From NCBI RefSeq assembly GCF_943736985.1, contig NZ_CALSFS010000002.1, positions 310,001-374,000 on the forward strand: a stretch of 64,000 nt of DNA, given 5' to 3'. Made by a program: the position numbers and the translations under genes. Below are positions 8,243 to 64,000 of this stretch, piece after piece. Numbering within the stretch: position 1 is the stretch's first letter; each line of letters starts with the position of its first letter. This DNA is from Clostridium sp. Marseille-Q2269 (lineage in GTDB: Bacteria > Bacillota > Clostridia > Clostridiales > Clostridiaceae). The notes beneath the pieces were generated by a model. It saw nothing but the letters and a program-made list of their open reading frames with translations, ran no database searches and was not told the DNA's origin.

Positions 8243-8971
8243 CTAGTTATATTTTAATTTAGTCATAGCTTTCTTCAAATGAATTATAGCTCTACTATGA
8301 AGTTGGCACACTCTAGATTCAGATACACTTAATATCTTTCCTATTTCTTTTAAGGTTAACTCTTCGTAATAATATAACGTCACTACTAATCTATCTTTTT
8401 CATTTAATAGTTCTATGGCTTTAGCTAAATAATCTAACTGCTCATTATCCTCTACATGTTTTTCTGGACTTGGACTTTTTTCATCTTTTATCGTCCCTAT
8501 AAGTGGCACTTCATCTTCTGATGAAAAAATTAAATCTTCCAAAGAAATTATTGATATATAGTTTATATAATTTTCAATTTCGCTTACTTCTTTTAAAGAT
8601 ATATTTAACTCATTTGCTATTTGTATTAAATTGGGCTCTTTATTTAATTTTTTCTGAAGCTTTTCTATAGCTTCATTATATCTATTTAATTTATCCATAG
8701 CCCCTTTTGATATGGGGCTATTTCTTCTCAATTCATCTATCATAGAACCCTTTATTCTTATGGATGCATAAGTAGAAAACTTCATTCCTTTAGATTCATC
8801 AAACTTATTTAAAGCATCCATCAATCCGATCATACCATAGCTAACTAAGTCCTCATATTCTATATATTTAGTCTTTCCGATTATAACTCTAGAGGCTATA
8901 TATTTAACTAAAGGAATATATTTCTTTACTATTTCTTCTTTTACATATGAATTATTATCAGCTATTGCCAT
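8243..8971 (-). CDS. sigD: Flagellar sigma factor sigma-D / FliA (sigma-28)
   Basis: 242-residue sigma-70 family factor directing RNA polymerase to late flagellar promoters. Region 2 is clear (YIPLVKYIASRV, then YEDLVSYGMIGLMDAL and KFDESKGMKFSTYASIRIKG), followed by DELRRNSPISK, diagnostic of the FliA/SigD/WhiG subgroup. Region 3 follows, and region 4 ends in LTLKEIGKILSVSESRVCQLHSRAI (helix-turn-helix, about 205-230). The window holds seven matching promoter sites (TAAA-N16-xCGATA; see the promoter entries). It sits between pilZ and the SwrB-like gene, as in Bacillus, where the late position in the operon limits sigma-D levels. The start is ATG with AGGAGG upstream. No flgM anti-sigma gene is in this window. 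Confidence 0.96.
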   Translation of the reverse strand: MAIADNNSYVKEEIVKKYIPLVKYIASRVIIGKTKYIEYEDLVSYGMIGLMDALNKFDESKGMKFSTYASIRIKGSMIDELRRNSPISKGAMDKLNRYNEAIEKLQKKLNKEPNLIQIANELNISLKEVSEIENYINYISIISLEDLIFSSEDEVPLIGTIKDEKSPSPEKHVEDNEQLDYLAKAIELLNEKDRLVVTLYYYEELTLKEIGKILSVSESRVCQLHSRAIIHLKKAMTKLKYN

Positions 8972-13825: not shown

Positions 13826-15658
13826 TTACTTATTTTTCTTTTTTAGAGTATAAACTACAGCTAATATCTCTGCCACAGCTTCATACATATCCTGGGGCAC
13901 TTCTGAATCTATTTCCACTTTCTCATATATCAATCTTGCTAATGGCTTATTTTCTATAACAGGAACTTCACTATTTTTAGCTATATCTTTTATTTTTATA
14001 GCTACATAATCTGCTCCTTTTGCCACAACTTTAGGTGCAGTATCTCCCTTTTCATACTTTAATGCTACAGCTATATGTGTAGGGTTTGTAACTACAACTG
14101 TAGCTTTAGGAACTTCCTGCATCATTCTTTGCATAGCCATTTCTCTTTGCTTTTGTTTTATCTTAGACTTAATTTGAGGATCTCCTTCATCTTGTTTATA
14201 CTCCTCTTTCACCTCTTGTTTTGTCATTTTCAAATCCTTATTATATTGATATTTCTGATATATGTAGTCTGCAACAGCTACAAAAAGCATAATCAAAGTT
14301 ATTCTAAAAAATATACCTACAGAAATTGACAAAAGTCCTGTTATCATGTACAAAGGTTTCAATGTTCCTAAATTTAATATTTTTAAATAATTATCCTTTA
14401 AAAACTTATAACCTATAATACCTACAACACTTATTATGGCTAAATCTTTGAAAAGCTCCATTACAGTTCTCATAGAAAACATTCTTTTGAACCCATTAAT
14501 GGGATTCAATTTCTTAAAATCTGGTTTTAATGGTTCTTTTGTAAATAAAACTCCTGTTTGTAGATAATTTGCTGCTATACCAAAACACATAACTGTTATG
14601 GCCATAGGTAGAACTATTTTACCTACCCTTAATACAGTTAGTATAGCCAATGAACTTAAATTATTATAATTTAATTGTACATTAAGATAATTATTTAAAA
14701 ATCCTGCCATAGTATCTTTAAGGACATTAGCTCCATATTCCCCTAATGCTACTAATACTAAAGTGCAAGCTAGCAAAGTAAATGCAAGAGCTAATTCTTT
14801 ACTTTTAGCTACTTGTCCTTTTTTTCTTGCATCCATTTTTTTACGCGGAGTTGCTTCCTCTGTCTTTTCTTCAGAGGCGAAAATAATTAACACAGGTATA
14901 ATCTTATAAAAACCTCTTATGGCATCCGGTAACATACCAAAAACAGAGTTTAAAATTTTTAAAAATAAAGGTAATGCAAATACAAAAGCAGTAAGCCCAA
15001 CTACTATTTTAATAGGAAGTCCTAAAATCATTATATTTAATTGTGGAACTGTTCTTGCTACTAATCCTAAGGTTAAATCCGTTATAAGTATAATAAATAT
15101 AATAGGTACCGCTATTTTAATGCTTATGTAAAAATATTGTATAAAAACATTTATAACATGTTTTATACCCTCTTGATTTATAAAAAATGCCCCTAACTTT
15201 ATGGCATTAAAACTCTCTACCAAAGCTCTTATGAGCATGTGATGTCCATCTATTAAAAAAAATACAATGATACTAAACCAATATAAAATTCTCTCCAAAA
15301 AGGTTATATTGCTATTAGTACTAGGATCAAACATAGTCATCATAGCAAAGCCTACCTGAAGATCCATCATATTTCCTGCATATCTTGCACAAACAAAAGC
15401 AGCATTGGTTATATATCCTAAAATAGCCCCTGCTAATATCTCATTAATTATATTAAATATTAATGCAGTTGAATTATTTATAGTATTTATCCCGTGAATA
15501 TCTATAGATCCAACTAACATATAAGCCATAATTAAAGCCAATAAAACCTTTCCTATTATAGGCGTTCCCTTTGGGAAAAATATAGGAACCATAATAAAAA
15601 AGATAAAAAGCCTAAAAGAAATCAAGATTATGGCTGTAGCATAGGCTGCACTTATCAA
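13826..15658 (-). CDS. fliR-flhB: Fused FliR-FlhB flagellar export protein
   Basis: A single 610-residue protein joins two normally separate export components. Residues about 1-260 are FliR (six hydrophobic helices, with MDLQVGFAMMTMFDPSTNSN typical of FliR). From about 262 the FlhB signature begins (EEKTEEATPRKKMDARKKGQ), followed by four membrane helices and the cytoplasmic C-domain with the self-cleavage motif NPTH at 525-528 in VVVTNPTHIAVALKY. FlhB cleavage there switches export from hook to filament substrates. The FliR-FlhB fusion is known in Clostridium, and the reading frame is continuous, so it is not a sequencing error. The start is TTG at 15656-15658 with AGGAGAGG upstream. Confidence 0.96.
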   Translation of the reverse strand: MISAAYATAIILISFRLFIFFIMVPIFFPKGTPIIGKVLLALIMAYMLVGSIDIHGINTINNSTALIFNIINEILAGAILGYITNAAFVCARYAGNMMDLQVGFAMMTMFDPSTNSNITFLERILYWFSIIVFFLIDGHHMLIRALVESFNAIKLGAFFINQEGIKHVINVFIQYFYISIKIAVPIIFIILITDLTLGLVARTVPQLNIMILGLPIKIVVGLTAFVFALPLFLKILNSVFGMLPDAIRGFYKIIPVLIIFASEEKTEEATPRKKMDARKKGQVAKSKELALAFTLLACTLVLVALGEYGANVLKDTMAGFLNNYLNVQLNYNNLSSLAILTVLRVGKIVLPMAITVMCFGIAANYLQTGVLFTKEPLKPDFKKLNPINGFKRMFSMRTVMELFKDLAIISVVGIIGYKFLKDNYLKILNLGTLKPLYMITGLLSISVGIFFRITLIMLFVAVADYIYQKYQYNKDLKMTKQEVKEEYKQDEGDPQIKSKIKQKQREMAMQRMMQEVPKATVVVTNPTHIAVALKYEKGDTAPKVVAKGADYVAIKIKDIAKNSEVPVIENKPLARLIYEKVEIDSEVPQDMYEAVAEILAVVYTLKKKNK

Positions 15659-30357: not shown

Positions 30358-31215
30358 CTATTTAGCTTTTACATTTTCCAATATTCTCAATACATCCATA
30401 GGAAAATTATTAGTTTGGTGCATTATAGCAACAGAAGATTGATATAAAATATCAGATTTAACATAAATCATCATTTCTTCCGCTACATCTGCATCTACTA
30501 AATTACTATTAGCACTTTCCATTTTAAGAGATATCTCTCCTATATTATCCATAGATTCATCAAGCCTATTTTGCAATGCTCCATATTTACTTCTTACAGA
30601 AAATACAGTTTCCATAGCTTTGTTTATAGAGTCCAGACTTTGTCCAATTTTCTTTTCATCTGTAACATCTATTCCTTGTATGTCTAATCCATCTTTATTA
30701 CTCTTCAAATTATAGAATGGAATGTCTATTACTTCTCCTACATTAGATCCTATAGGTATAGGCTTTACCATTACGTCTTTTTTTTCATCAAATTTTTTTC
30801 CCTGAGAAAGAAGCTTAACTCCATTAAATTCTGTATAGTCAGCTGTAGTATCTATGGCAGATATAAGTTCATTTATTTCATTTTGAATTACTTTTTTATC
30901 ATGCAAATCATTTGATCCGTTAGCAGCTTGAATAGTAAGCTCTTTCACTCTAATTAGCATATTCCCTATGTTTTCTAGTCCGCCTTCTGCAGTTTGAAGC
31001 ATACTAACTCCATCCTGAGCATTTCTTGAAGCCATTTGAAGACCTCTTATCTGTATCTTAGTCTTTTCACTTTGAGCCATTATATTAGGATCATCTTTTG
31101 AACATCTAACCTTAAATCCTGAAGTTATTTTATCTAAAGCTCCACTTTGCTCTGCTAAGTTCTTTGTATAATTTCTAAACACATTTAGCGATGCCAAATT
31201 ATGACTTAATCTCAT
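30358..31215 (-). CDS. Divergent flagellin-family protein
   Basis: 285 residues. The N-terminal flagellin domain (ASLNVFRNYTKNLAEQSGAL, MASRNAQDGVSMLQTAEGGL, ELTIQAANGSNDL) and a recognisable C-terminal domain (NRLDESMDNIGEISLKMESANSNLVDADVAEEMM within its span) are joined by a short middle, so this is a short filament-type protein. The C-terminus (MHQTNNFPMDVLRILENVKAK) departs from the usual [13 protein letters not shown] ending of the main flagellin. A Cys (about C38) lies in the N-domain, unusual for exported flagellins. ATG 31213-31215 has GGAGGT 7 nt upstream. It has its own sigma-D promoter (31299-31325) and terminator. A minor filament subunit or a hook-filament junction protein (FlgL-like) are the alternatives. 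Confidence 0.85.
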   Translation of the reverse strand: MRLSHNLASLNVFRNYTKNLAEQSGALDKITSGFKVRCSKDDPNIMAQSEKTKIQIRGLQMASRNAQDGVSMLQTAEGGLENIGNMLIRVKELTIQAANGSNDLHDKKVIQNEINELISAIDTTADYTEFNGVKLLSQGKKFDEKKDVMVKPIPIGSNVGEVIDIPFYNLKSNKDGLDIQGIDVTDEKKIGQSLDSINKAMETVFSVRSKYGALQNRLDESMDNIGEISLKMESANSNLVDADVAEEMMIYVKSDILYQSSVAIMHQTNNFPMDVLRILENVKAK

Positions 31216-31298
31216 TCCTATTACCTCCAAAATAAAATTAAATATTAAAACATATATATTTAAAATTAAAATCTAATTTATACAAACATATATTTTTT

Positions 31299-31325
31299 CT
31301 ATCGTACCTAATTTATATTACTTTA
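31299..31325 (-). promoter_or_regulatory. Sigma-D (sigma-28) promoter for the flagellin-family gene at 30358
   Basis: Minus strand TAAA (31322-31325), a 16-nt spacer, then ACGATAG (31299-31305). It lies about 84 bp upstream of the start codon, between the preceding gene's stop and this gene. The spacing is identical to the other six sites in the window. Confidence 0.75.
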
Positions 31326-55923: not shown

Positions 55924-56601
55924 TTATTTTATTTTAGGTATTACAGCTATTACTGGAAGTTCTAAGTATTTGTCTATATCATTTTCTGTCTTTATTGTTT
56001 TATCCATGTATTCTTGTATAAAAGCTATTCCTACAGATATTAAAAGACCTAAAAATAAGGCTATAGCTATATTAAGCAATTTTTTGGGTTTTATTGGCTT
56101 ATCTGGTATTACTGGCTTATCTAATAATTCTATAGTATTGTTTGGATATATCTTCTTGCTCTGAGATATAAATTCGTTACATACTGTTGTAAGTACATTA
56201 TATGCAAATTGAGCATCCTTATCTTCTATTTTTAAGTCTATAATTTGTGTATCAGCTTGAGGTGTTATACTTAATTTTTTTTGTAGCTCCTCTGGTTTTA
56301 ATTTTCCTGTTTTAGCTACTACATTTTCTGATACAGTTCTGGAATTAGCGATCTGAGCATATGTTTTAACTAATTTTTGGTACATCATTACATCATTATA
56401 GTTATTTTTATTATCATTTTTCTCTTCTGCGGCTTTACCTATAACCACACTAGCTTTTACTTCATAGGTAGGTGGAATAACAAAAAAACTTAACGCTGCA
56501 GATACTATGCCAAATACTAATATTGTTATTAAAATCATTTTCTTTTTATTTTTCAGCACATTAAAAATCCCTTGTAAATCTAAGTTTACTTCTTCATTCA
56601 T
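55924..56601 (-). CDS. Polysaccharide chain-length regulator, Wzz/CapA family (CpsC-like)
   Basis: 225 residues with N- and C-terminal membrane helices (about 26-48 and 175-195), a Wzz domain between, and the proline-rich motif KPVIPDKPIKPKKLLNIAIA typical of the second helix region. It is the membrane adaptor that activates the BY-kinase encoded two genes on. ATG 56599-56601 has GGAGGAG 9 nt upstream; the ATG 18 bp earlier is part of that site. Confidence 0.92.
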   Translation of the reverse strand: MNEEVNLDLQGIFNVLKNKKKMILITILVFGIVSAALSFFVIPPTYEVKASVVIGKAAEEKNDNKNNYNDVMMYQKLVKTYAQIANSRTVSENVVAKTGKLKPEELQKKLSITPQADTQIIDLKIEDKDAQFAYNVLTTVCNEFISQSKKIYPNNTIELLDKPVIPDKPIKPKKLLNIAIALFLGLLISVGIAFIQEYMDKTIKTENDIDKYLELPVIAVIPKIK

Positions 56602-56638
56602 TTTAAGAATCTCCTCCATTGGTAAATAAAATAAATAA

Positions 56639-57601
56639 TTAATTAGGTTTTATATCTTCAAATATATATTTATGCATTTGTTCTATAGTCTTATTTTCAT
56701 TGTATAATAGATAATAAACACCATCTATAAGCTTTCCTTCGCAATAATCATCTAAAGGAAATCTTTGTTGTTCTATATTATCTCCTCCCAAAGAAAAAGC
56801 TGAAGTACCTTTTTTCATGATTTCTGTAGAAGAAAGACTAGTTTCTACATTAGGTAATAAAGCAGTAATTACTTTAGGTAATTGTGTAGGTCCCAACTTC
56901 TTAACTTTATTCATAATAGCTGTTAAAACAGTCCTTTGTCTTTCTGTTCTCTCATAATCTCCACCATTAGTGTATCTTATTCTTGCATATGCAACTGCTT
57001 GCATACCGCTTAAATTTTGAAGTCCTGAGTTTTCTACTACTTGTACGGTTTTTCCTTCAATCTTAGAAGTTTCTTGCATATAATCATTTATATACTTTAT
57101 TTCATCCGCTCTTACAGGTATTTGTATTCCTCCAACGGTATCTATTATTTTTTCTAATCCATAAAAATCTACCGCTACAAAATCTCTAATATTTAATTTA
57201 TAATTTTTATTTATAGTTTTTATGGCTAGCTCTGGTCCTCCATAGGCATAAGCATGATTTAATTTAGTTTTTCCATGTTCATCTATATTTACATAGGAAT
57301 CCCTCATTATAGATGATATCTTTACCTTGTTATGCTTTTTATCTAAAGAAACTATCATAATGGCATCAGATCTTGAAGGTTCATCTTTTTTTCTTCTATC
57401 CAATCCAAAAAAAGCCATATTTATAACATCTTCTCCATATTTATCTGCACTTTTATCTATTTTTAGTTCTTTAGTATTCTTAGATATTGATATTTTTTTA
57501 ACCTTGCTAAGTTGATTATAAGCATATAATGTTCCTATTGCCCCTATAAGCACAATTATTGTGACTACTACCAATATTAATTTGCTTTTTTTACCTTTCA
57601 T
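56639..57601 (-). CDS. LytR-CpsA-Psr (LCP) family phosphotransferase
   Basis: 320 residues. N-terminal membrane helix (ILVVVTIIVLIGAIGTLYAY, about 9-28) and an extracellular LCP domain: FGLDRRKKDEPSRSDAIMIV (arginine and Asp of the active site), SIMRDSYVNI, KLNHAYAYGGPELAIKTIN, VDFYGLEKIIDTVGGI and ARIRYTNGGDYERTERQR. It would transfer the finished polymer from undecaprenyl phosphate to peptidoglycan. ATG with AAAGGAG upstream. A sigma-D site lies at 57720-57746, so the cps genes below may be read partly as part of the motility regulon. Confidence 0.94.
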   Translation of the reverse strand: MKGKKSKLILVVVTIIVLIGAIGTLYAYNQLSKVKKISISKNTKELKIDKSADKYGEDVINMAFFGLDRRKKDEPSRSDAIMIVSLDKKHNKVKISSIMRDSYVNIDEHGKTKLNHAYAYGGPELAIKTINKNYKLNIRDFVAVDFYGLEKIIDTVGGIQIPVRADEIKYINDYMQETSKIEGKTVQVVENSGLQNLSGMQAVAYARIRYTNGGDYERTERQRTVLTAIMNKVKKLGPTQLPKVITALLPNVETSLSSTEIMKKGTSAFSLGGDNIEQQRFPLDDYCEGKLIDGVYYLLYNENKTIEQMHKYIFEDIKPN

Positions 57602-57719
57602 ATAATAGCTCCTTTCAAAACAAATCTATTAATAATAATACCATATATGAACATAAAATATAATATTATATTAAAGATAAAGTATTTTCCTACATTACTT
57701 TCTGTTTCTAATAATTATT

Positions 57720-57746
57720 TTATCGATTATTTGCTATTATTCTTTA
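57720..57746 (-). promoter_or_regulatory. Putative sigma-D promoter upstream of the LCP/cps genes
   Basis: On the minus strand TAAA (57743-57746), 16-nt spacer, TCGATAA (57720-57726), 119 bp before the LCP start codon. The -10 core is identical to that of the fliB promoter. Spacing equals all other sites. It is the only one facing a non-flagellar operon. Confidence 0.6.
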
Positions 57747-57927
57747 TACAAAATTTAATATTATGCTGAGTTCTTTTATTATTTAAATAAACTTATAGAC
57801 ATTTTTTTGTTAATATAATTATTTTCGACAACTATTTCTATGCATTTATACATATATATTTATCATTGTATTACAAGTTAATTTAATGCTTTTTAACATA
57901 TTCCAATATTTTCTTAGATATTAAAAT

Positions 57928-58026
57928 AGGAGCTGTCGCACTAAGAATAAATCCTACAATATATTGTGTTAACTTTAAACTGTAAAACAATATATTGTAC
58001 TTAAATTCTTTAATACGACAGCCTCT
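57928..58026. repeat. Palindromic repeat copy 1 (IS-end-like MITE)
   Basis: AGGAGCTGTCG at the left (57928-57938) mirrors CGACAGCCTCT at the right (58016-58026). Then CACTAAGAATAAATCC and AATTCTTTAAT blocks pair imperfectly, and CAATATATTG occurs on both sides of the centre. About 99 bp. It is related to copy 2 at 58344. The CTGTCGCACTAA end looks like the terminal repeat of an IS1182-type element, but there is no transposase. It may also terminate the Spo0E-like transcript. Confidence 0.6.
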
Positions 58027-58046
58027 CTGTTTAAATGTTTATATGT

Positions 58047-58214
58047 TTATTTATATTCGTTTTTCATATACTGTACTATTAATTCATCCATTTCTCTACT
58101 TAAATCTAATATTTTCTCTTCATCCCTATCCTTCTCTTCTAATGTAATACTTATTTCATATAAATCTTGCCTTAATTCACTCATTTCTTCAAATAAACTC
58201 TCCCTAGTTTTCAA
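58047..58214 (-). CDS. Spo0E-like sporulation regulatory protein (small aspartyl-phosphatase family)
   Basis: A 55-codon frame that is easily overlooked. The last 45 residues read MSELRQDLYEISITLEEKDR then a stretch ending LSREMDELIVQYMKNEYK. That end matches the Spo0E family C-terminal pattern SxxLDxLIxxY (SREMDELIVQY), and the two-helix hairpin layout and length (about 50-60) fit. Spo0E-like proteins dephosphorylate Spo0A~P and delay sporulation. Start: TTG 58212-58214, with GGAG 5-6 nt upstream; the ATG at 58182-58184 has no good site and would give 45 residues. It has a sigma-D site 58 bp upstream and lies between two palindromic repeats. Recognition rests on the motif, not on a search. 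Confidence 0.65.
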   Translation of the reverse strand: MKTRESLFEEMSELRQDLYEISITLEEKDRDEEKILDLSREMDELIVQYMKNEYK

Positions 58215-58271
58215 TCAGTCTCCACTCTCCCATATACTGTAAGTAAAATACAAATTTAATTAATATTATAA

Positions 58272-58298
58272 ATATCGTTACTATACTGGAAACTTTTA
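58272..58298 (-). promoter_or_regulatory. Putative sigma-D promoter for the Spo0E-like gene
   Basis: On the minus strand TAAA (58295-58298), 16-nt spacer, ACGATAT (58272-58278), 58 bp before the TTG start. Same spacing as the flagellin promoters. Confidence 0.65.
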
Positions 58299-58343
58299 TA
58301 TATAAATTATATTTTTTGTTAAATATTAGGTGAATATATAATT

Positions 58344-58434
58344 GGGGTGTCTCACTAACAATAAATCCTACAATATATTGCTTTAAACTTGTAAATCAAT
58401 ATATTATGATTAAATTCTTTAGTGCAACATTCCC
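58344..58434. repeat. Palindromic repeat copy 2 (IS-end-like MITE, decayed)
   Basis: Shares AATAAATCCTACAATATATT and the CACTAA, TTAAATTCTTTA and CAATATATT blocks with copy 1 in the same order. The ends GGGTGTCTCACTAA and TTAGTGCAACATTCCC are more diverged. Together with copy 1 it flanks the Spo0E-like gene and its promoter. From 58435 to 58597 I see only AT-rich sequence without a gene. Confidence 0.55.
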
Positions 58435-58597
58435 TTAAATTTTTATCTTAATTTTTATTTTTCGTTTGAAATTCTTTATTACATATTAGAATCATTTAAT
58501 TTACCAAGTTTCAATTCTCTAATTTTTAAATTATGTATATTATTATCAAAAGACAATAAAATTAATCTTTTAATTTTATTACTTAAAGTATTATAAA

Positions 58598-58669
58598 AAT
58601 AATAAACTGTACCCTGCATGATATTCACAGAAAGAAACTGTGTTATTTTACAGAGTACAGTCTACTATT
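58598..58669 (-). terminator. Terminator of the chemoreceptor gene
   Basis: ACTGTACCCTG (58606-58616) pairs with CAGAGTACAGT (58651-58661), one mismatch, and an inner hairpin CACAG/CTGTG lies within. Flanking AT bases extend the stem. On the minus strand it is followed by TTATTATTTTTATA. It begins 12 bp after the stop codon. Confidence 0.75.
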
Positions 58670-58681
58670 TTATTATATCTT

Positions 58682-59530
58682 TTATTTGTGGTTTTCTACA
58701 AATTTTTGTAGATTTTTAATAGTTTCATTAAGAGTTTCTATTCTAGATAAAATCTCTTCCGTAGAAGCTGCTTGTTCTTGGCTAATGGCTCCTACGCTTC
58801 CTATGGTGTTATTGATCTCATTTACACTATTGTTCATTTCAGCTAATATTTTTTCTATATTTTTTACAGCCTCTTGAGATTGGTCTGATAATTTTCTAAC
58901 TTGTCCTGCAACTACCGCGAAGCCACGACCAGATTCTCCTGCCCTTGCAGCCTCTATAGCTGCATTAAGTCCTAACAAATTAGTTTGAGTAGCTATACCC
59001 TTTATAAACTCTAAAATTTCAGAAGTATCATTTTTCTTATTATTTAATTCTTCTACCATAGCAATAGCATTTTGTCCGGATTTTGCTAAGCTTTCTGCTG
59101 ATTCTGACACCTGAGCAGTATTCTCGGTTACAAGCTTAATATTATCTGCTAACCTTTGAACACCCTCTATTAATTTATGATTATTTTCTACATCTATTCC
59201 AGAGCTAAAAGTACCTATAACCTCATTGTTTATACCATAAATAGGAGTCAGTGTGCTTTTTATAGCTCTTCCATATACATCTTTAGGGACATCTTCACAT
59301 ATATCCTTTTTATATCTAATACATTCTTCTATAGGTTTTATGCCAGTTATACTTTTACCCTCTGATAGTTCCAATTGAAGCTCTTTAGATTTGCTAAACC
59401 CAATATATTTGTCTAAATCTGTAATAGCTAAAACTATATCTTCATGAACAATTTTATTTATGTAAGGTAATACTATTTTAAAGGCTTCTAATATCTCTTC
59501 ATTACTTTTAAACATTCCACTTCTATCCAT
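58682..59530 (-). CDS. Soluble methyl-accepting chemotaxis protein
   Basis: 282 residues with no membrane helix. The C-terminal half is the MCP signalling domain: [20 protein letters not shown], then the tip hairpin [20 protein letters not shown] (about 191-210) and [11 protein letters not shown]. The N-terminal 115 residues form a small sensor domain (PAS/Cache-like) with Cys70 and Cys78 and [14 protein letters not shown]. It is shorter than membrane chemoreceptors, as in the cytoplasmic YfmS-like class. It could signal to CheA elsewhere in the genome. ATG with AAAGGGAG upstream. No own sigma-D site is seen, but a flagellin-family gene lies upstream in the same direction. Confidence 0.88.
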
Positions 59531-59591
59531 TTATTACTCTCCCTTTTCCAAATTTTCCTTTGTTCAACATTGCTTCTATATTTATTAAAAC

Positions 59592-59641
59592 AAAAGCTCT
59601 TGTTTATAGTAAACCTTTTTTACCAAATAACAAAAGCTTTT
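59592..59641 (-). terminator. Terminator of the flagellin-family gene at 59685
   Basis: AAAAGCTCTTGTT (59592-59604) pairs with AACAAAAGCTTTT (59629-59641), one mismatch, with extra pairing inside. On the minus strand TTTTGTTTTAATA follows. Confidence 0.7.
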
Positions 59642-59684
59642 ATATTATAATCTGTTTATATTTATATAGTAATTTATTTAAGAT

Positions 59685-60494
59685 CTAGCTAAATAATAAT
59701 TTATTTACAACAGAAGCTAAAGATTGTTGCTCTGTTCTTGAGCTTACTAATATAGAATAACTACATTTTTCTAAAATCTGTCCCTTAATTAAATCTATAG
59801 CTGACATAGCCATATCAGTATCCTCTATCTTTGATAAAGCAGCAGTGGTACTATACTCAGAATTATTACAATGATTATAGGAATGATACAAATTATTATA
59901 ATCTCCACCTAATTGATTTCTATAGTCTGCTATTTTAGAAACAGCATTTTTTATATTATCTATGGAATCTACTGCATTAGATAAATTTGTTACAGAACTA
60001 TTATCTAAACCTATATATGATAAATCTACAGATTTTAAATCAATGGTATATGTAGTATATGGGTTATCTCCTGTTTGTATATTTATCTTTTCAGCTCCAC
60101 TTAATAATTTTATATCATTAAAAGAAGTGTTCTCCATTATTTCGCTTATAGATGTCTTTATACTTTGGAATTCTTTATCTAAAAGTTTTCTATCTTTATC
60201 TTCTAAAGTATCATTCGCTGCTTGTATAGAGATCTTTTCCATTCTCATAAGTTGATTTGATATATTAGAAAGGGCTCCATCTACAGTTTGAAGCATGGAT
60301 ATACCTTCCTCAGTATTTCTTTGTGCTCTAGAAATACTCCTAACTTGTGCTTTAAAGCTTTCTTGGATAGCAACATCTGCTCCATTGTTTACCCTCTTCC
60401 CTGAGCTTATACCTTTCATTAACTTAGCACTTTTTGTTTTATTTTCTCTTACTTTGCTAAATAAATTCAACACATTTTCATCGTTAACTATCAC
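59685..60494 (-). CDS. Divergent flagellin-family protein (short)
   Basis: 269 residues. N-terminal flagellin helices (KLMKGISSGKRVNNGADVAI, RAQRNTEEGISMLQTVDGAL, EKISIQAANDTLEDKDR) and C-terminal helices (SKIEDTDMAMSAIDLIKGQI) are kept, with a short middle. The end is VSSRTEQQSLASVVNKLLFS rather than the [14 protein letters not shown] of the main flagellin, and it has two Cys (in HCNNSE and EKCSYS), unusual for a filament subunit. GTG 60492-60494 is chosen because AAGGAGGTGG lies 4 nt upstream. Frame extension beyond it lacks a site. A minor flagellin or a junction protein is possible. Confidence 0.82.
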   Translation of the reverse strand: MIVNDENVLNLFSKVRENKTKSAKLMKGISSGKRVNNGADVAIQESFKAQVRSISRAQRNTEEGISMLQTVDGALSNISNQLMRMEKISIQAANDTLEDKDRKLLDKEFQSIKTSISEIMENTSFNDIKLLSGAEKINIQTGDNPYTTYTIDLKSVDLSYIGLDNSSVTNLSNAVDSIDNIKNAVSKIADYRNQLGGDYNNLYHSYNHCNNSEYSTTAALSKIEDTDMAMSAIDLIKGQILEKCSYSILVSSRTEQQSLASVVNKLLFS

Positions 60495-60535
60495 GCTTCC
60501 ACCTCCTTGTGTAAAATCATAGTTTATACATTTTA

Positions 60536-60562
60536 TTATCGTATGATTCCCTCTAAAATTTA
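60536..60562 (-). promoter_or_regulatory. Sigma-D promoter for the flagellin-family gene at 59685
   Basis: On the minus strand TAAA (60559-60562), 16-nt spacer, ACGATAA (60536-60542), 42 bp before the GTG start. Confidence 0.75.
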
Positions 60563-60662
60563 TATTCAATATGTAAAAGGTGAAGTATGAACTCACTTCT
60601 TTTGATGATTATAAATTTATTTTTGTTTTATAATTATTCCATTAGGAGCTATAGATTTATTA

Positions 60663-61892
60663 TTACTTTATAAGCATTGCCATGTAAGCCATAGTATTCA
60701 TATTATTATCCTTTAATATTTCATAAACATTTTCTATAAATGAATCACTATGTTCAACTACTCTACTAAAACTTTGTATAGTGCTTACTACTTTTTCCTC
60801 ATTAAATTCCTCTTTGTAAAATGAAGCCAATCCTATAAGATGCATCCTAATTATTGCATATTTAACTACTAGTATTTCATAATTCTCAAATAAATCTTTT
60901 CTCTTTAAAGGAAATACATCTTTAAAAACATCATTCACCAAATAATTTTCTAGTATATATTCATATTTTTCTTCAAAATTTTTATTATAATAATCATATG
61001 CTTTTTCATAGGATTTTAATTTGTCTTTCTTTTCTCCTTCATTATTAAACTCCATGCCTTCCATGGATTCTTGTAGCATATTTATATATTTTTCATTATT
61101 TATGCCCATAGAAACTCTTTTATTAGTTAAAGCAGTAGTTATTAAAGATTGAACTTCCATATTACATGGTATTTTTAATAATTCCTCTTTATACAATCCT
61201 TTCTGGATATTTGAATTGTAGTTTGCTATTATATTAATTGAATCAATAAGCTTTGATTTACTAACTTTATTGTAAAATAAACCTAATATAGTTACCCTTT
61301 CCCACAATCTATAATCTCTGTTTTGCAAAAGAGATATGGTAAAAATTCTAAAGTCCCATAAATATCTATTTACTTTGTTTTTAAAATCCACTTTACTTGT
61401 ATCTATTGTCTTTCTTAATCCACCCTTTATTTGTTTTTCTTCTTCTATAACATCAAATTCCATAGGCTCTTTATTTAATAGTGCACGTCTAGCTGCCTCT
61501 GGACAGGACATAGTAGCTGATATCTCCAAACAATCATCTATATTATTATAATTTCTTGGATATATAGTGCAGGTTACACTTAGTCCATCTTCTCCTAAAT
61601 GTTTATGTATATTGCAAAGTTTATTTTCATCTAAAAAAGGACATTCTCCATTTTCTCTTAATATTATCTTTGCATAATTAGCATAATCGCCTTTGCTTCT
61701 CCATCTGGTTATATTAGTTGAAAACAAATCTTTTAACTTTTGATTTTTAGTCTCCTTATATTTTTTGTAAGTATCTTTATCTATAGATATACTCCATTTA
61801 ACACAACAACTTTCACTACATTCTTTCCCTATACATTTAAAATCTTTCATATATTGGGGTAGCAATACTTTATGAAATTTATGTCCCTCCAT
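60663..61892 (-). CDS. fliB: FliB-family flagellin lysine-N-methylase
   Basis: 409 residues. The N-terminus has a cluster of cysteines: C20, C25, C29 and C30 in FKCIGKECSESCCVKW, followed by ECPFLDENKLCNIHKHLG and TCTIYPRNY (more Cys), then SCPEAARRALL. This matches FliB (lysine methylation of flagellin, cofactor and mechanism incompletely defined, Fe/Zn-cluster type Cys motif). In this window it lies directly downstream of a flagellin gene and has its own sigma-D site, so target and enzyme are likely co-regulated. ATG with GGAGGT upstream. Confidence 0.9.
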   Translation of the reverse strand: MEGHKFHKVLLPQYMKDFKCIGKECSESCCVKWSISIDKDTYKKYKETKNQKLKDLFSTNITRWRSKGDYANYAKIILRENGECPFLDENKLCNIHKHLGEDGLSVTCTIYPRNYNNIDDCLEISATMSCPEAARRALLNKEPMEFDVIEEEKQIKGGLRKTIDTSKVDFKNKVNRYLWDFRIFTISLLQNRDYRLWERVTILGLFYNKVSKSKLIDSINIIANYNSNIQKGLYKEELLKIPCNMEVQSLITTALTNKRVSMGINNEKYINMLQESMEGMEFNNEGEKKDKLKSYEKAYDYYNKNFEEKYEYILENYLVNDVFKDVFPLKRKDLFENYEILVVKYAIIRMHLIGLASFYKEEFNEEKVVSTIQSFSRVVEHSDSFIENVYEILKDNNMNTMAYMAMLIK

Positions 61893-61937
61893 TTATAATA
61901 CCTCCATTTTTTCTTTTGTATAAAAACATTTAATACT

Positions 61938-61964
61938 TTATCGATATATTTCTTTAATACTTTA
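61938..61964 (-). promoter_or_regulatory. Sigma-D promoter for fliB
   Basis: On the minus strand TAAA (61961-61964), 16-nt spacer, TCGATAA (61938-61944), 46 bp before the ATG. Its surrounding sequence is close to the distal flagellin promoter at 63637. Confidence 0.75.
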
Positions 61965-61980
61965 TTTTAAAATAGGAAAT

Positions 61981-62014
61981 AAAAAAAGCCGAAGAATATT
62001 TCTTCGACTTTTTT
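61981..62014. terminator. Bidirectional terminator between flagellin and fliB
   Basis: CGAAGAA (61990-61996) pairs with TTCTTCG (62000-62006), extended by A-run and T-run flanks (AAAAAAAGC and ACTTTTTT). It lies 11 bp after the flagellin stop and before the fliB promoter. Confidence 0.85.
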
Positions 62015-62025
62015 AAATAAATTAA

Positions 62026-63249
62026 TTATCTTAATAATTGTAAAACACCTTGTGGTTGTTGATTAGCTTGTGCAAGCATTGCTTGTGCAGCTTGTTGAAG
62101 AATGTTATTTTTAGAGAATGTCATCATTTCATTTGCCATGTCAACGTCTCTTACTCTTGATTCAGCTGCTTGTAAGTTCTCGCTTGATGTTCCTAAATTA
62201 TTTATTGTATGTTCTAATCTATTTTGGTAAGCACCAAGTTTAGATCTTTCAGTTGATACTGTGTTTATAGCATTATTTAAAACTTCTATAGCATTTGTAG
62301 CATTATCATGATTTGACACATCAAGAGCACTTTCTGATTCATTAGAGTCTGTTCCATTTGTAACTCCTTCTTTTGCAGTGAAAACAACACCTGCTGCTCC
62401 TGTTTTTCCTGTTCCTAAAGATATTTTTAAAGCTTCTGATCTCATATCTTCAATTGTCATTGTGAAAGCTTGACCTTTGTTTGCACCAATTTGTAATGTA
62501 GCTGAGAATTCTGTGCTTGGCATGTCATCTCCTATTTTTATCTCTTTTACTCCAGCTGTTGTTACAGTTACCGTACCTGAAGATGTTGGTTGAATAGAAT
62601 CTTCGTGTCCTGCTTTTTGTTTTACAGTTATACCTTTAGTACCATCCGCAACAATATCATATTTAGCTTTTAAAGTAGCATTATTACCTAATTTTGTAAC
62701 TAAATCTGCTAAATCCCCAGCTCCTTTTATAGTTTCACCATCTAATGTAAAGTCTTTTGTAGCATCTGCAATTGCTACTTTATATTCTCCTGCTTTTGCT
62801 GCAACTACATCAGCTGCTGTTGCTTTTTTAACTCCACCATTTAACATTTTTTGAGTATTAAATTCAGTAGTGTTTCCTACTCTGTTTATTTCAGAAGTTA
62901 ATTGATTTATTTCTTTTTGTATTTGATCTCTATCTTCTGTTGTGTTTGTATCATTTGATGCTTGAGTTGCAAGTTCTCTCATTCTTTGAAGAATTGAGTG
63001 AGTTTCGTTTAATGCACCTTCTGCAGTTTGTATCATTGATATACCATCTTGAGCATTTCTTGATGCTTGATCAAGACCTCTAACTTGTGCTCTCATTTTT
63101 TCTGAGATAGCTAGTCCTGCTGCATCATCTCCAGCTCTGTTTATTCTTAAACCTGAGCTTAATTTTTCCATTGATTTTCCTGCGCTTCTTACATTACCCA
63201 TCATATTTCTATGAGCGTTCATTGCATTCATGTTATGATTGATTATCAT
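62026..63249 (-). CDS. fliC: Flagellin, major filament subunit
   Basis: 407 residues. The N-terminal D0/D1 part (MIINHNMNAMNAHRNMMGNV, then AGDDAAGLAISEKMRAQVRG and ASRNAQDGISMIQTAEGALN) and the C-terminal part (NLQAAESRVRDVDMANEMMT, then [19 protein letters not shown]) are fully typical. The middle (about 145-325) is a variable, Ala/Thr/Gly/Asp-rich exposed domain. No Cys and little aromatic residue, as expected for exported filament protein. I start at ATG 63247-63249, with AAGGAGGA 7 nt upstream; the extension MSKDAHFNLKLKEEFK is leader RNA and not protein, because its ATG is a stem base of the CsrA-type hairpin. Two sigma-D sites lie upstream. Confidence 0.97.
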   Translation of the reverse strand: MIINHNMNAMNAHRNMMGNVRSAGKSMEKLSSGLRINRAGDDAAGLAISEKMRAQVRGLDQASRNAQDGISMIQTAEGALNETHSILQRMRELATQASNDTNTTEDRDQIQKEINQLTSEINRVGNTTEFNTQKMLNGGVKKATAADVVAAKAGEYKVAIADATKDFTLDGETIKGAGDLADLVTKLGNNATLKAKYDIVADGTKGITVKQKAGHEDSIQPTSSGTVTVTTAGVKEIKIGDDMPSTEFSATLQIGANKGQAFTMTIEDMRSEALKISLGTGKTGAAGVVFTAKEGVTNGTDSNESESALDVSNHDNATNAIEVLNNAINTVSTERSKLGAYQNRLEHTINNLGTSSENLQAAESRVRDVDMANEMMTFSKNNILQQAAQAMLAQANQQPQGVLQLLR

Positions 63250-63299
63250 TTTAAATTCCTCCTTGAGTTTTAAATTGAAATGAGCATCCTTGCTCATTT
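63250..63299 (-). promoter_or_regulatory. CsrA-type translational control site in the flagellin leader
   Basis: On the transcript AAATGAGCA pairs perfectly with TGCTCATTT (63278-63299) around the loop AGGA, an exposed GGA in a GCAAGGATGC context. The Shine-Dalgarno AAGGAGGA carries a second GGA site 20 nt later. Two such sites, one in a hairpin and one on the ribosome binding site, are how CsrA blocks hag in Bacillus (FliW-CsrA switch). The csrA and fliW genes are not in the window. Confidence 0.75.
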
Positions 63300-63426
63300 T
63301 TTTATTTTAAGCATATAGCTTAATTGCAATTTCTTTGTTCATATTATAATACTATATTAAAACATAACTCTTAGATATGATTAAAATATAATATTTATAA
63401 ATTAGTTTATACTAATCATATTTTTT

Positions 63427-63453
63427 ATATCGGAATATAAAAACAATACTTTA
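63427..63453 (-). promoter_or_regulatory. Sigma-D promoter (proximal) for the major flagellin
   Basis: On the minus strand TAAA (63450-63453), 16-nt spacer, CCGATAT (63427-63433), the best match to the Bacillus sigma-D consensus in the window. It gives a leader of about 170 nt. Confidence 0.85.
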
Positions 63454-63636
63454 TATTTAAACTGAAATTTCTTATATATTTTTAAAATACCTAAAACATT
63501 GTGTTCATAAATTAATTCATATTAAATACCCTTTATATATAACCTTAAATTTCTCATATGCTTTTTAATATCTAAAATATTATATTTTTAATATAATTAT
63601 AATATGATAAATTACTTTAAATTAAATACATTATAT

Positions 63637-63663
63637 ATATCGATATATCACTATAATACTTTA
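63637..63663 (-). promoter_or_regulatory. Sigma-D promoter (distal) for the major flagellin
   Basis: On the minus strand TAAA (63660-63663), 16-nt spacer, TCGATAT (63637-63643), 210 bp upstream of the proximal site. Its flanks resemble those of the fliB promoter. Apart from the two promoters, 63300-63824 is AT-rich with no gene; three degenerate repeats of about 100 bp begin at 63397, 63507 and 63607. Confidence 0.6.
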
Positions 63664-63824
63664 CATTAAAATTAAAAAATTTTACATAAATGTATTAAAA
63701 TTTATATGCTAAATTCCATATACTAAACTACCCAAACTCTACAAATATTTAAAACAAAGCAACTTCTCTTTTTAATTCAAGTTAAAAAGATTAATTAAAT
63801 AAATTTTAAAATCTATAAATTTAT

Positions 63825-64000
63825 TTATCTCAATAATTGAAGTATTCCTTGTGGTTGTTGATTAGCTTGTGCAAGCATTGCTTGTGCAGCTTGTTGAAGA
63901 ATATTATTTTTAGAGAATGTCATCATTTCTTGTGCCATATCAACATCTCTTATTCTACTTTCAGATGCTTGTAAGTTTTCACTTGATGTTCCTAAATTGT
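63825..64000 (-). CDS. Second flagellin gene, 3' end only
   Basis: 58 codons before the right edge: [20 protein letters not shown], then [20 protein letters not shown] and [17 protein letters not shown]. Almost the same as the C-terminal end of the major flagellin (few substitutions), and a 56-bp stretch near the 3' end is identical in DNA. This is a tandem flagellin paralogue. Stop TAA at 63825-63827. A hairpin CTTTTTAA/TTAAAAAG (63768-63789) beyond it is a weak terminator without a U-run. Confidence 0.95.

What the first reader, a model, noticed from the sequence alone, without database searches (positions are those of the whole stretch)
58047..58298. Hidden Spo0E-like gene under an apparent sigma-D promoter
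A 55-codon frame with TTG start ends in SREMDELIVQY, the Spo0E C-terminal pattern. A TAAA-N16-ACGATAT site lies 58 bp upstream. If real, the motility sigma factor would drive a protein that lowers Spo0A~P and so delays sporulation while the cell swims. I know of no described direct sigma-D to Spo0E link of this kind in clostridia.
Basis: partly seen in the sequence, partly recalled or inferred. Interest (0 to 1): 0.8.

Follow-up and report, generated by a model that had tools for sequence, protein, structure and literature searches.

The report
Spo0E-like gene behind motility promoter
A small, easily missed gene for a Spo0E-type sporulation brake lies among the flagellar genes behind what looks like a promoter for the motility sigma factor, which would let swimming cells hold off making spores; the gene looks real, but its control and effect are still a prediction.

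Summary
The 55-codon frame at 58047-58214 (-) is a full-domain Spo0E-family match (PF09388, E 5.8e-9, 36.2 bits, cut-off 23), with the SxxxD signature, gene-like codon usage and a predicted two-helix fold. The site at 58272-58298 is as described and is one of 8 TAAA-N17-CGATA sites in the window, against 0.5 expected; five of the others precede flagellin or flagellin-methylase genes and one an LCP gene. Four of 11 published C. difficile SigD promoters share the N17 spacing (PMC3865298). A strong hairpin separates the unit from the upstream gene. Against: matrices built only from C. difficile promoters do not single the site out window-wide, and no relative with the locus was reachable, so conservation is open. 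The wiring has partial precedents: SigB drives spo0E and SigD is listed for rapB in B. subtilis; in C. difficile Spo0E restrains sporulation and motility. A direct SigD-to-Spo0E link in clostridia was not found in the library searched. Verdict: real gene, probable SigD promoter, new wiring of known parts.

The parts
58047..58214 (-). Spo0E-like protein gene, 55 codons, TTG start; SxxxD signature SREMD near the C-terminus
   Evidence: PF09388 E 5.8e-9, 36.2 bits, cut-off 23; codon score; two-helix model, mean pLDDT 78.7
58272..58298 (-). sigma-D-like promoter: TAAA (58295-58298), N17, CGATA (58273-58277); 58 bp before the TTG
   Evidence: 8 sites of this form in the window against 0.5 in shuffles; only N17 enriched; modest score with C. 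difficile matrices
58215..58264 (-). inferred leader of about 50 nt, with a GGAG ribosome-binding-site-like stretch 5 nt before the TTG; an in-frame TGA lies directly before the TTG
   Evidence: sequence; start of transcription inferred, not mapped
58590..58690 (-). strong intrinsic-terminator-like hairpin just 3' of the chemoreceptor gene, separating it from the Spo0E-like gene
   Evidence: -35.1 kcal/mol, z -8.2, 0 of 200 shuffles as stable, T-rich 3' side; the simple terminator scan did not list it
57925..58030 (.). imperfect-palindrome repeat element 3' of the gene; long hairpin, possible terminator
   Evidence: fold -37.9 kcal/mol, z -7.3 on the - strand; repeat pair
58340..58440 (.). second copy of the same repeat element, same orientation, 5' of the promoter; the two copies bracket gene and promoter
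   Evidence: repeat pair, 79% and 90% identical in two matched stretches; fold -24.7 kcal/mol, z -4.0; alignment
8243..8971 (-). FliA/WhiG-family sigma factor (presumed sigma D) in the same flagellar cluster
   Evidence: TIGR02479 E 7.9e-80, above cut-off
63427..63453 (-). sigma-D-like site before the flagellin gene 62026-63297 (a further one at 63637-63663)
61938..61964 (-). sigma-D-like site 46 bp before the flagellin lysine-N-methylase gene fliB (60663-61892)
60536..60562 (-). sigma-D-like site before the second flagellin-type gene (59685 to a likely start near 60494, inferred)
31299..31325 (-). sigma-D-like site 69 bp before the flagellin-type gene 30358-31230
57720..57746 (-). sigma-D-like site 119 bp before the LCP gene heading the polysaccharide genes (a weaker one at 57822-57848)

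Best explanation
The frame is a real Spo0E-family gene transcribed on its own from a sigma-D promoter. When the flagellar sigma factor is active, the cell makes this small helical-hairpin protein along with flagellins and FliB. The protein binds Spo0A and removes its phosphate, using the aspartate of the SxxxD motif, so that motile cells are held back from sporulation. Shown here: the gene, its family, the signature motif, the promoter-like site and its local set, and a hairpin that separates it from the upstream gene. Inferred: that sigma D reads the site, that Spo0A~P is the target, and that sporulation is delayed.
For: PF09388 match over nearly the whole domain, 1 of 44 small ORFs scanned; SxxxD motif, the signature named in PMC11115286; gene-like codon score; two-helix model. 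Site in a set of 8 against 0.5 expected, N17 only. Four of the 11 C. difficile promoters of PMC3865298 Table 3 have the N17 spacing (CD0226, flgM, flgK, CD3527), two of these four with the same CGATA core (CD0226, flgM). Neighbouring sites precede flagellins and fliB. A FliA/WhiG sigma gene lies in the cluster. Terminator-like hairpin before the unit.
Against: The base after TAAA is A, where the six other gene-linked sites used from this window have G or T; in C. difficile Table 3, 3 of 11 promoters have A there (CD0230, fliQ, tcdR), so this is unusual only locally. Matrices from C. difficile alone do not single the site out window-wide. A sigma-A-like 10-of-12 match overlaps it (58292-58265), though such matches are near chance level there (31 found, shuffle mean 24.1, sd 4.9). 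The adjacent chemoreceptor gene has no TAAA-N17-CGATA site directly upstream. No conservation evidence could be had. In C. difficile a sigD mutant sporulated like wild type (PMC3865298, passage).
Confidence: 0.5

Rival explanations
1. The Spo0E-like gene is real and acts on Spo0A, but sigma D does not drive it: a sigma-A (or other) promoter is used and the TAAA-N17-CGATA site is a chance or relict match.
For: Overlapping sigma-A-like site 58292-58265, 10 of 12; locally atypical base after TAAA and modest score with the C. difficile matrices.
Against: Exact 9-base core at the only enriched spacing; 6 of 5000 local shuffles; sigma-A-like matches are near the shuffle level.
Confidence: 0.25
2. 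The protein is sigma-D driven but its main target is a motility regulator (an RstA-like partner) or another response regulator, giving negative feedback on the motility programme rather than, or besides, a sporulation delay.
For: In C. difficile, Spo0E binds both Spo0A and RstA, and its loss raises motility and toxin output (PMC11115286, abstract and passages). The same paper suggests diverse, species-specific roles for Spo0E-like proteins.
Against: No RstA-like gene was looked for, in the window or elsewhere; the family's best-studied target is Spo0A.
Confidence: 0.18
3. The unit is a decaying or mobile passenger between two repeat elements with no present role.
For: Two similar hairpin elements in direct orientation bracket gene and promoter; non-ATG start.
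Against: Intact family-length frame, full motif, gene-like codon usage.
Confidence: 0.07

Closest known systems
Spo0E / YisI / YnzD family of Spo0A~P phosphatases (PF09388), Bacillus
   Same: Profile match over nearly the whole domain, SxxxD motif, small two-helix protein
   Different: Here in a flagellar cluster with a sigma-D-like promoter; activity untested
C. difficile Spo0E (CD630_32710, 53 aa)
   Same: Size and signature; links sporulation with motility (PMC11115286, abstract, one section and passages)
   Different: There Spo0E restrains motility and toxin, through RstA as proposed; control of its gene by SigD is not mentioned in the passages read
SigB-driven spo0E in B. subtilis
   Same: An alternative sigma factor drives a Spo0E phosphatase to hold back sporulation (PMC7522486 and PMC11633097, passages)
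   Different: Stress sigma factor, not motility sigma factor
rapB of B. subtilis, listed as SigA;SigD
   Same: Motility sigma factor listed for a phosphatase that drains the Spo0A pathway (PMC5540618 Table 2, passage)
   Different: RapB acts on Spo0F~P, not on Spo0A~P; clear Spo0F and Spo0B orthologues are said to be absent in C. acetobutylicum, C. botulinum and C. difficile (PMC3533761, passage)
spo0E-like genes beside RRNPP quorum-sensing genes in C. saccharoperbutylacetonicum
   Same: Clostridial spo0E-like genes placed under a regulatory system that also affects motility (PMC7206700, passages)
   Different: Five of seven lie downstream of RRNPP-type genes, not in a flagellar cluster; no SigD link in the passages read
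C. difficile SigD promoters (PMC3865298 Table 3)
   Same: TAAA, spacer, CG core; 4 of 11 with the same N17 spacing
   Different: None of the 11 listed genes is named as a Spo0E gene

Membership tests
Spo0E-like (PF09388) | Score above the curated Pfam cut-off over the domain | tested here: met
   36.2 bits, cut-off 23, profile 2-42 of 42
Spo0E-like (PF09388) | SxxxD signature | tested here: met
   SREMD in the translation; signature as stated in PMC11115286
Spo0E-like (PF09388) | Small two-helix fold | tested here: inconclusive
   Single-sequence model with helices 4-24 and 31-52, mean pLDDT 78.7, pTM 0.50; no PDB fold match with E at or below 0.001 and no PDB sequence match
Spo0E-like (PF09388) | Dephosphorylates Spo0A~P | not testable with these tools
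   needs biochemistry
Sigma-D (FliA) regulon | Promoter of the TAAA-spacer-CGATA class upstream on the coding strand | tested here: met
Sigma-D (FliA) regulon | Site stands out window-wide with a matrix from another species | tested here: not met
   29 places score at least as high, shuffle mean 20.5, sd 4.9; 27-28 against 17.1-20.2 with ten promoters; local chance 0.0135-0.0225
Sigma-D (FliA) regulon | Site conserved in relatives | not testable with these tools
   no relative with the locus found or reachable (6, 15, 26)
Sigma-D (FliA) regulon | Transcript lost without sigma D | not testable with these tools
   needs an experiment

The most novel reading that the evidence does not exclude
A motility-gated sporulation brake: the flagellar sigma factor directly makes a Spo0E protein that both holds Spo0A~P low in swimming cells and feeds back on the motility programme. 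The unit sits between two direct repeats, so strains could gain or lose the brake as a block.
Probability: 0.15. Interest if true: 0.7.

Novelty: new variant of a known kind. Interest (0 to 1): 0.45.

Why it matters
How clostridia, several of which are reported to lack clear orthologues of the Bacillus sporulation kinases and relay proteins (PMC3533761, passage), decide between swimming and sporulating is open. A Spo0E gene under the motility sigma factor would be a one-step link between the two programmes, parallel to SigB-spo0E in Bacillus, and could be tested by transcript mapping and gene removal in a harmless relative.

Tried and rejected
Conservation: the Spo0E protein and the FliB protein found no relative in genome contigs, nor did the Spo0E protein in viral contigs, plasmids or phages; a DNA search of 57600-58700 against plasmids was empty. 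The window's genome is not held. These searches say nothing about conservation, since even fliB found no kin.

Structure: fold search of the model against PDB gave 13 matches, the best at E 3.0, uninformative for a short hairpin. PDB sequence searches were empty. The NCBIfam scan gave only a match far below its cut-off. No Rfam family over threshold at 56500-64000.

Repeat elements: searched for in viral contigs with two exact patterns, no match; whether they are mobile (MITE-like) stays open.

Considered and rejected: read-through from the chemoreceptor gene as the sole source of the transcript (strong hairpin); a chance frame.

Organism: the low G+C (27%) and gene content suggest a Clostridium. 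A closer resemblance to the proteolytic C. botulinum / C. sporogenes group is recalled only and was not tested.

Full report
What is there. On the minus strand at 58047-58214 is a 55-codon frame with a TTG start, directly preceded by an in-frame TGA and by a GGAG stretch 5 nt upstream. The product matches Pfam PF09388 (Spo0E-like) with E 5.8e-9 and 36.2 bits (cut-off 23), over profile positions 2-42 of 42. It holds SREMD, an SxxxD motif; SxxxD is named as the family signature in PMC11115286 (section read). NCBIfam gave no match above a cut-off. As a control, the 44 ORFs of 35 aa or more with under 30% overlap with the listed large genes were scanned: 1 of 44 matched PF09388, this one; others matched known small flagellar families, so the set is not pure background. 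The codon score (0.50 bits per codon) lies with gene segments (mean 0.44, sd 0.17) rather than with the rest (mean -0.10, sd 0.26; 95th percentile 0.37, maximum 0.66, a set that includes small genes and this one). A single-sequence AlphaFold model gives two helices (4-24, 31-52), mean pLDDT 78.7, as expected for the family; the PDB fold search gave nothing significant.

The promoter-like site. Written as TAAA-N17-CGATA, this form occurs 8 times in the 64 kb on both strands; 200 dinucleotide shuffles give a mean of 0.5 and a maximum of 4. Over spacings N8 to N26, N17 has 8 and every other spacing 0 to 3. Seven of the 8 are on the minus strand: two before flagellin 62026-63297, one before fliB 60663-61892, one before the flagellin-type gene with a likely start near 60494, one before the flagellin-type gene 30358-31230, one before the LCP gene 56639-57601, and the present one. 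The eighth (+, 61921-61946) overlaps the fliB site through a palindromic core and is probably incidental. The window also holds a FliA/WhiG sigma gene at 8243-8971 (TIGR02479, E 7.9e-80). Published C. difficile SigD promoters have a like layout (PMC3865298, section read): 4 of 11 have N17 between TAAA and CG, the others N15 to N18 by the paper's own range.

How strong is the site? With a matrix from the other six window sites on core positions, 8 places reach its score against 0.3 in shuffles; with flanking bases 11 to 13 against 2.8 to 3.7. The own-set matrix is partly circular, since the set was chosen by the same core. The independent tests are weaker. Six C. difficile promoters give the site 11.0 bits, reached by 29 places in the window against a shuffle mean of 20.5 (sd 4.9), while four of the other window sites rank first to fourth. 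Ten of the eleven promoters give 27-28 places against 17.1-20.2. The four N17-type promoters on core positions give 11 against 5.1, maximum 11. The low score comes from the bases around the core, such as the A after TAAA; that A is absent from the six other window sites but present in 3 of the 11 C. difficile promoters (CD0230, fliQ, tcdR). Locally, shuffles of the 150 bp upstream reach the C. difficile matrix score in 1.35 to 2.25% of cases and the exact motif in 6 of 5000. I put the chance that sigma D reads this site at about 0.7.

Setting. The upstream chemoreceptor gene (58682-59530; MCP signalling domain) is followed by a very stable hairpin with a T-rich 3' side (-35.1 kcal/mol, z -8.2), so the Spo0E-like gene is probably its own unit. 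Two copies of an imperfect palindrome of about 90 bp (57925-58030, 58340-58440), in the same orientation, 79% and 90% alike in the two matched stretches, bracket gene and promoter. They occur nowhere else in the window at up to 3 mismatches in a 21-base core.

How it most likely works. Sigma D, active in flagellated cells, makes the protein; it removes phosphate from Spo0A~P and so delays sporulation. Only the sequence features are shown; the rest rests on the family. Three published facts frame it. In B. subtilis, spo0E has a SigB promoter and blocks sporulation under stress (PMC7522486, passages; PMC11633097, passages). In B. subtilis, rapB is listed as SigA;SigD (PMC5540618 Table 2, passage). 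In C. difficile, Spo0E binds Spo0A and RstA, and its loss raises sporulation, motility and toxin (PMC11115286, abstract and passages); a review says RstA inhibits Spo0E function there (PMC11210211, passage). The last makes feedback on motility a serious rival. Against a strong sporulation role of sigma D, the C. difficile sigD mutant sporulated like wild type (PMC3865298, passage).

Literature. A 2012 comparison says that clear orthologues of Spo0E were not found in C. acetobutylicum, C. botulinum or C. difficile, yet lists spo0E among genes of all bacilli and most clostridia (PMC3533761, passages); C. difficile Spo0E has since been studied. In C. saccharoperbutylacetonicum five of seven spo0E-like genes lie downstream of RRNPP quorum-sensing genes (PMC7206700, passages). 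Searches of the held open-access library listed no paper describing direct SigD control of a Spo0E gene in clostridia, judged by titles, abstract starts and the passages read. Of the 20 papers listed, 7 hold both Spo0E and SigD by its counts; passages of all 7 were looked at, not the whole texts. The other 34 of the 54 papers of that search were not listed. Subscription papers and preprints are outside the library.

What is missing. Whether existing annotation already marks the gene could not be checked either, so 'hidden' is unverified.

Verdict. By sequence a regular member of the Spo0E family in an unusual place, with a probable sigma-D promoter: new wiring of known parts, worth a conservation check first.

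Noticed in passing
57925-58030 and 58340-58440: Two direct copies of an imperfect ~90 bp palindrome bracket the Spo0E-like unit; possibly small mobile (MITE-like) elements, which would make the unit removable by recombination.
   Followed up: partly
57720-57746 and 57822-57848: Two sigma-D-like sites (TAAA-N17-CGATA and TAAA-N17-CGAAA) precede the LCP gene that heads Wzz, CpsB, CpsD and sugar-transfer genes, suggesting the polysaccharide or flagellin-glycan genes may also be under sigma D.
   Followed up: partly
62019-62199 and 63818-63998: An 89% identical 181-bp repeat: the 3' end of a further flagellin-like gene lies at the window edge, so flagellin genes appear in tandem, next to a flagellin lysine-methylase gene (fliB).
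   Followed up: no
13826-15658: One 610-aa frame carries both a Bac_export_1 (FliR-type) and a Bac_export_2 (FlhB-type) domain, a FliR-FlhB fusion.
   Followed up: partly
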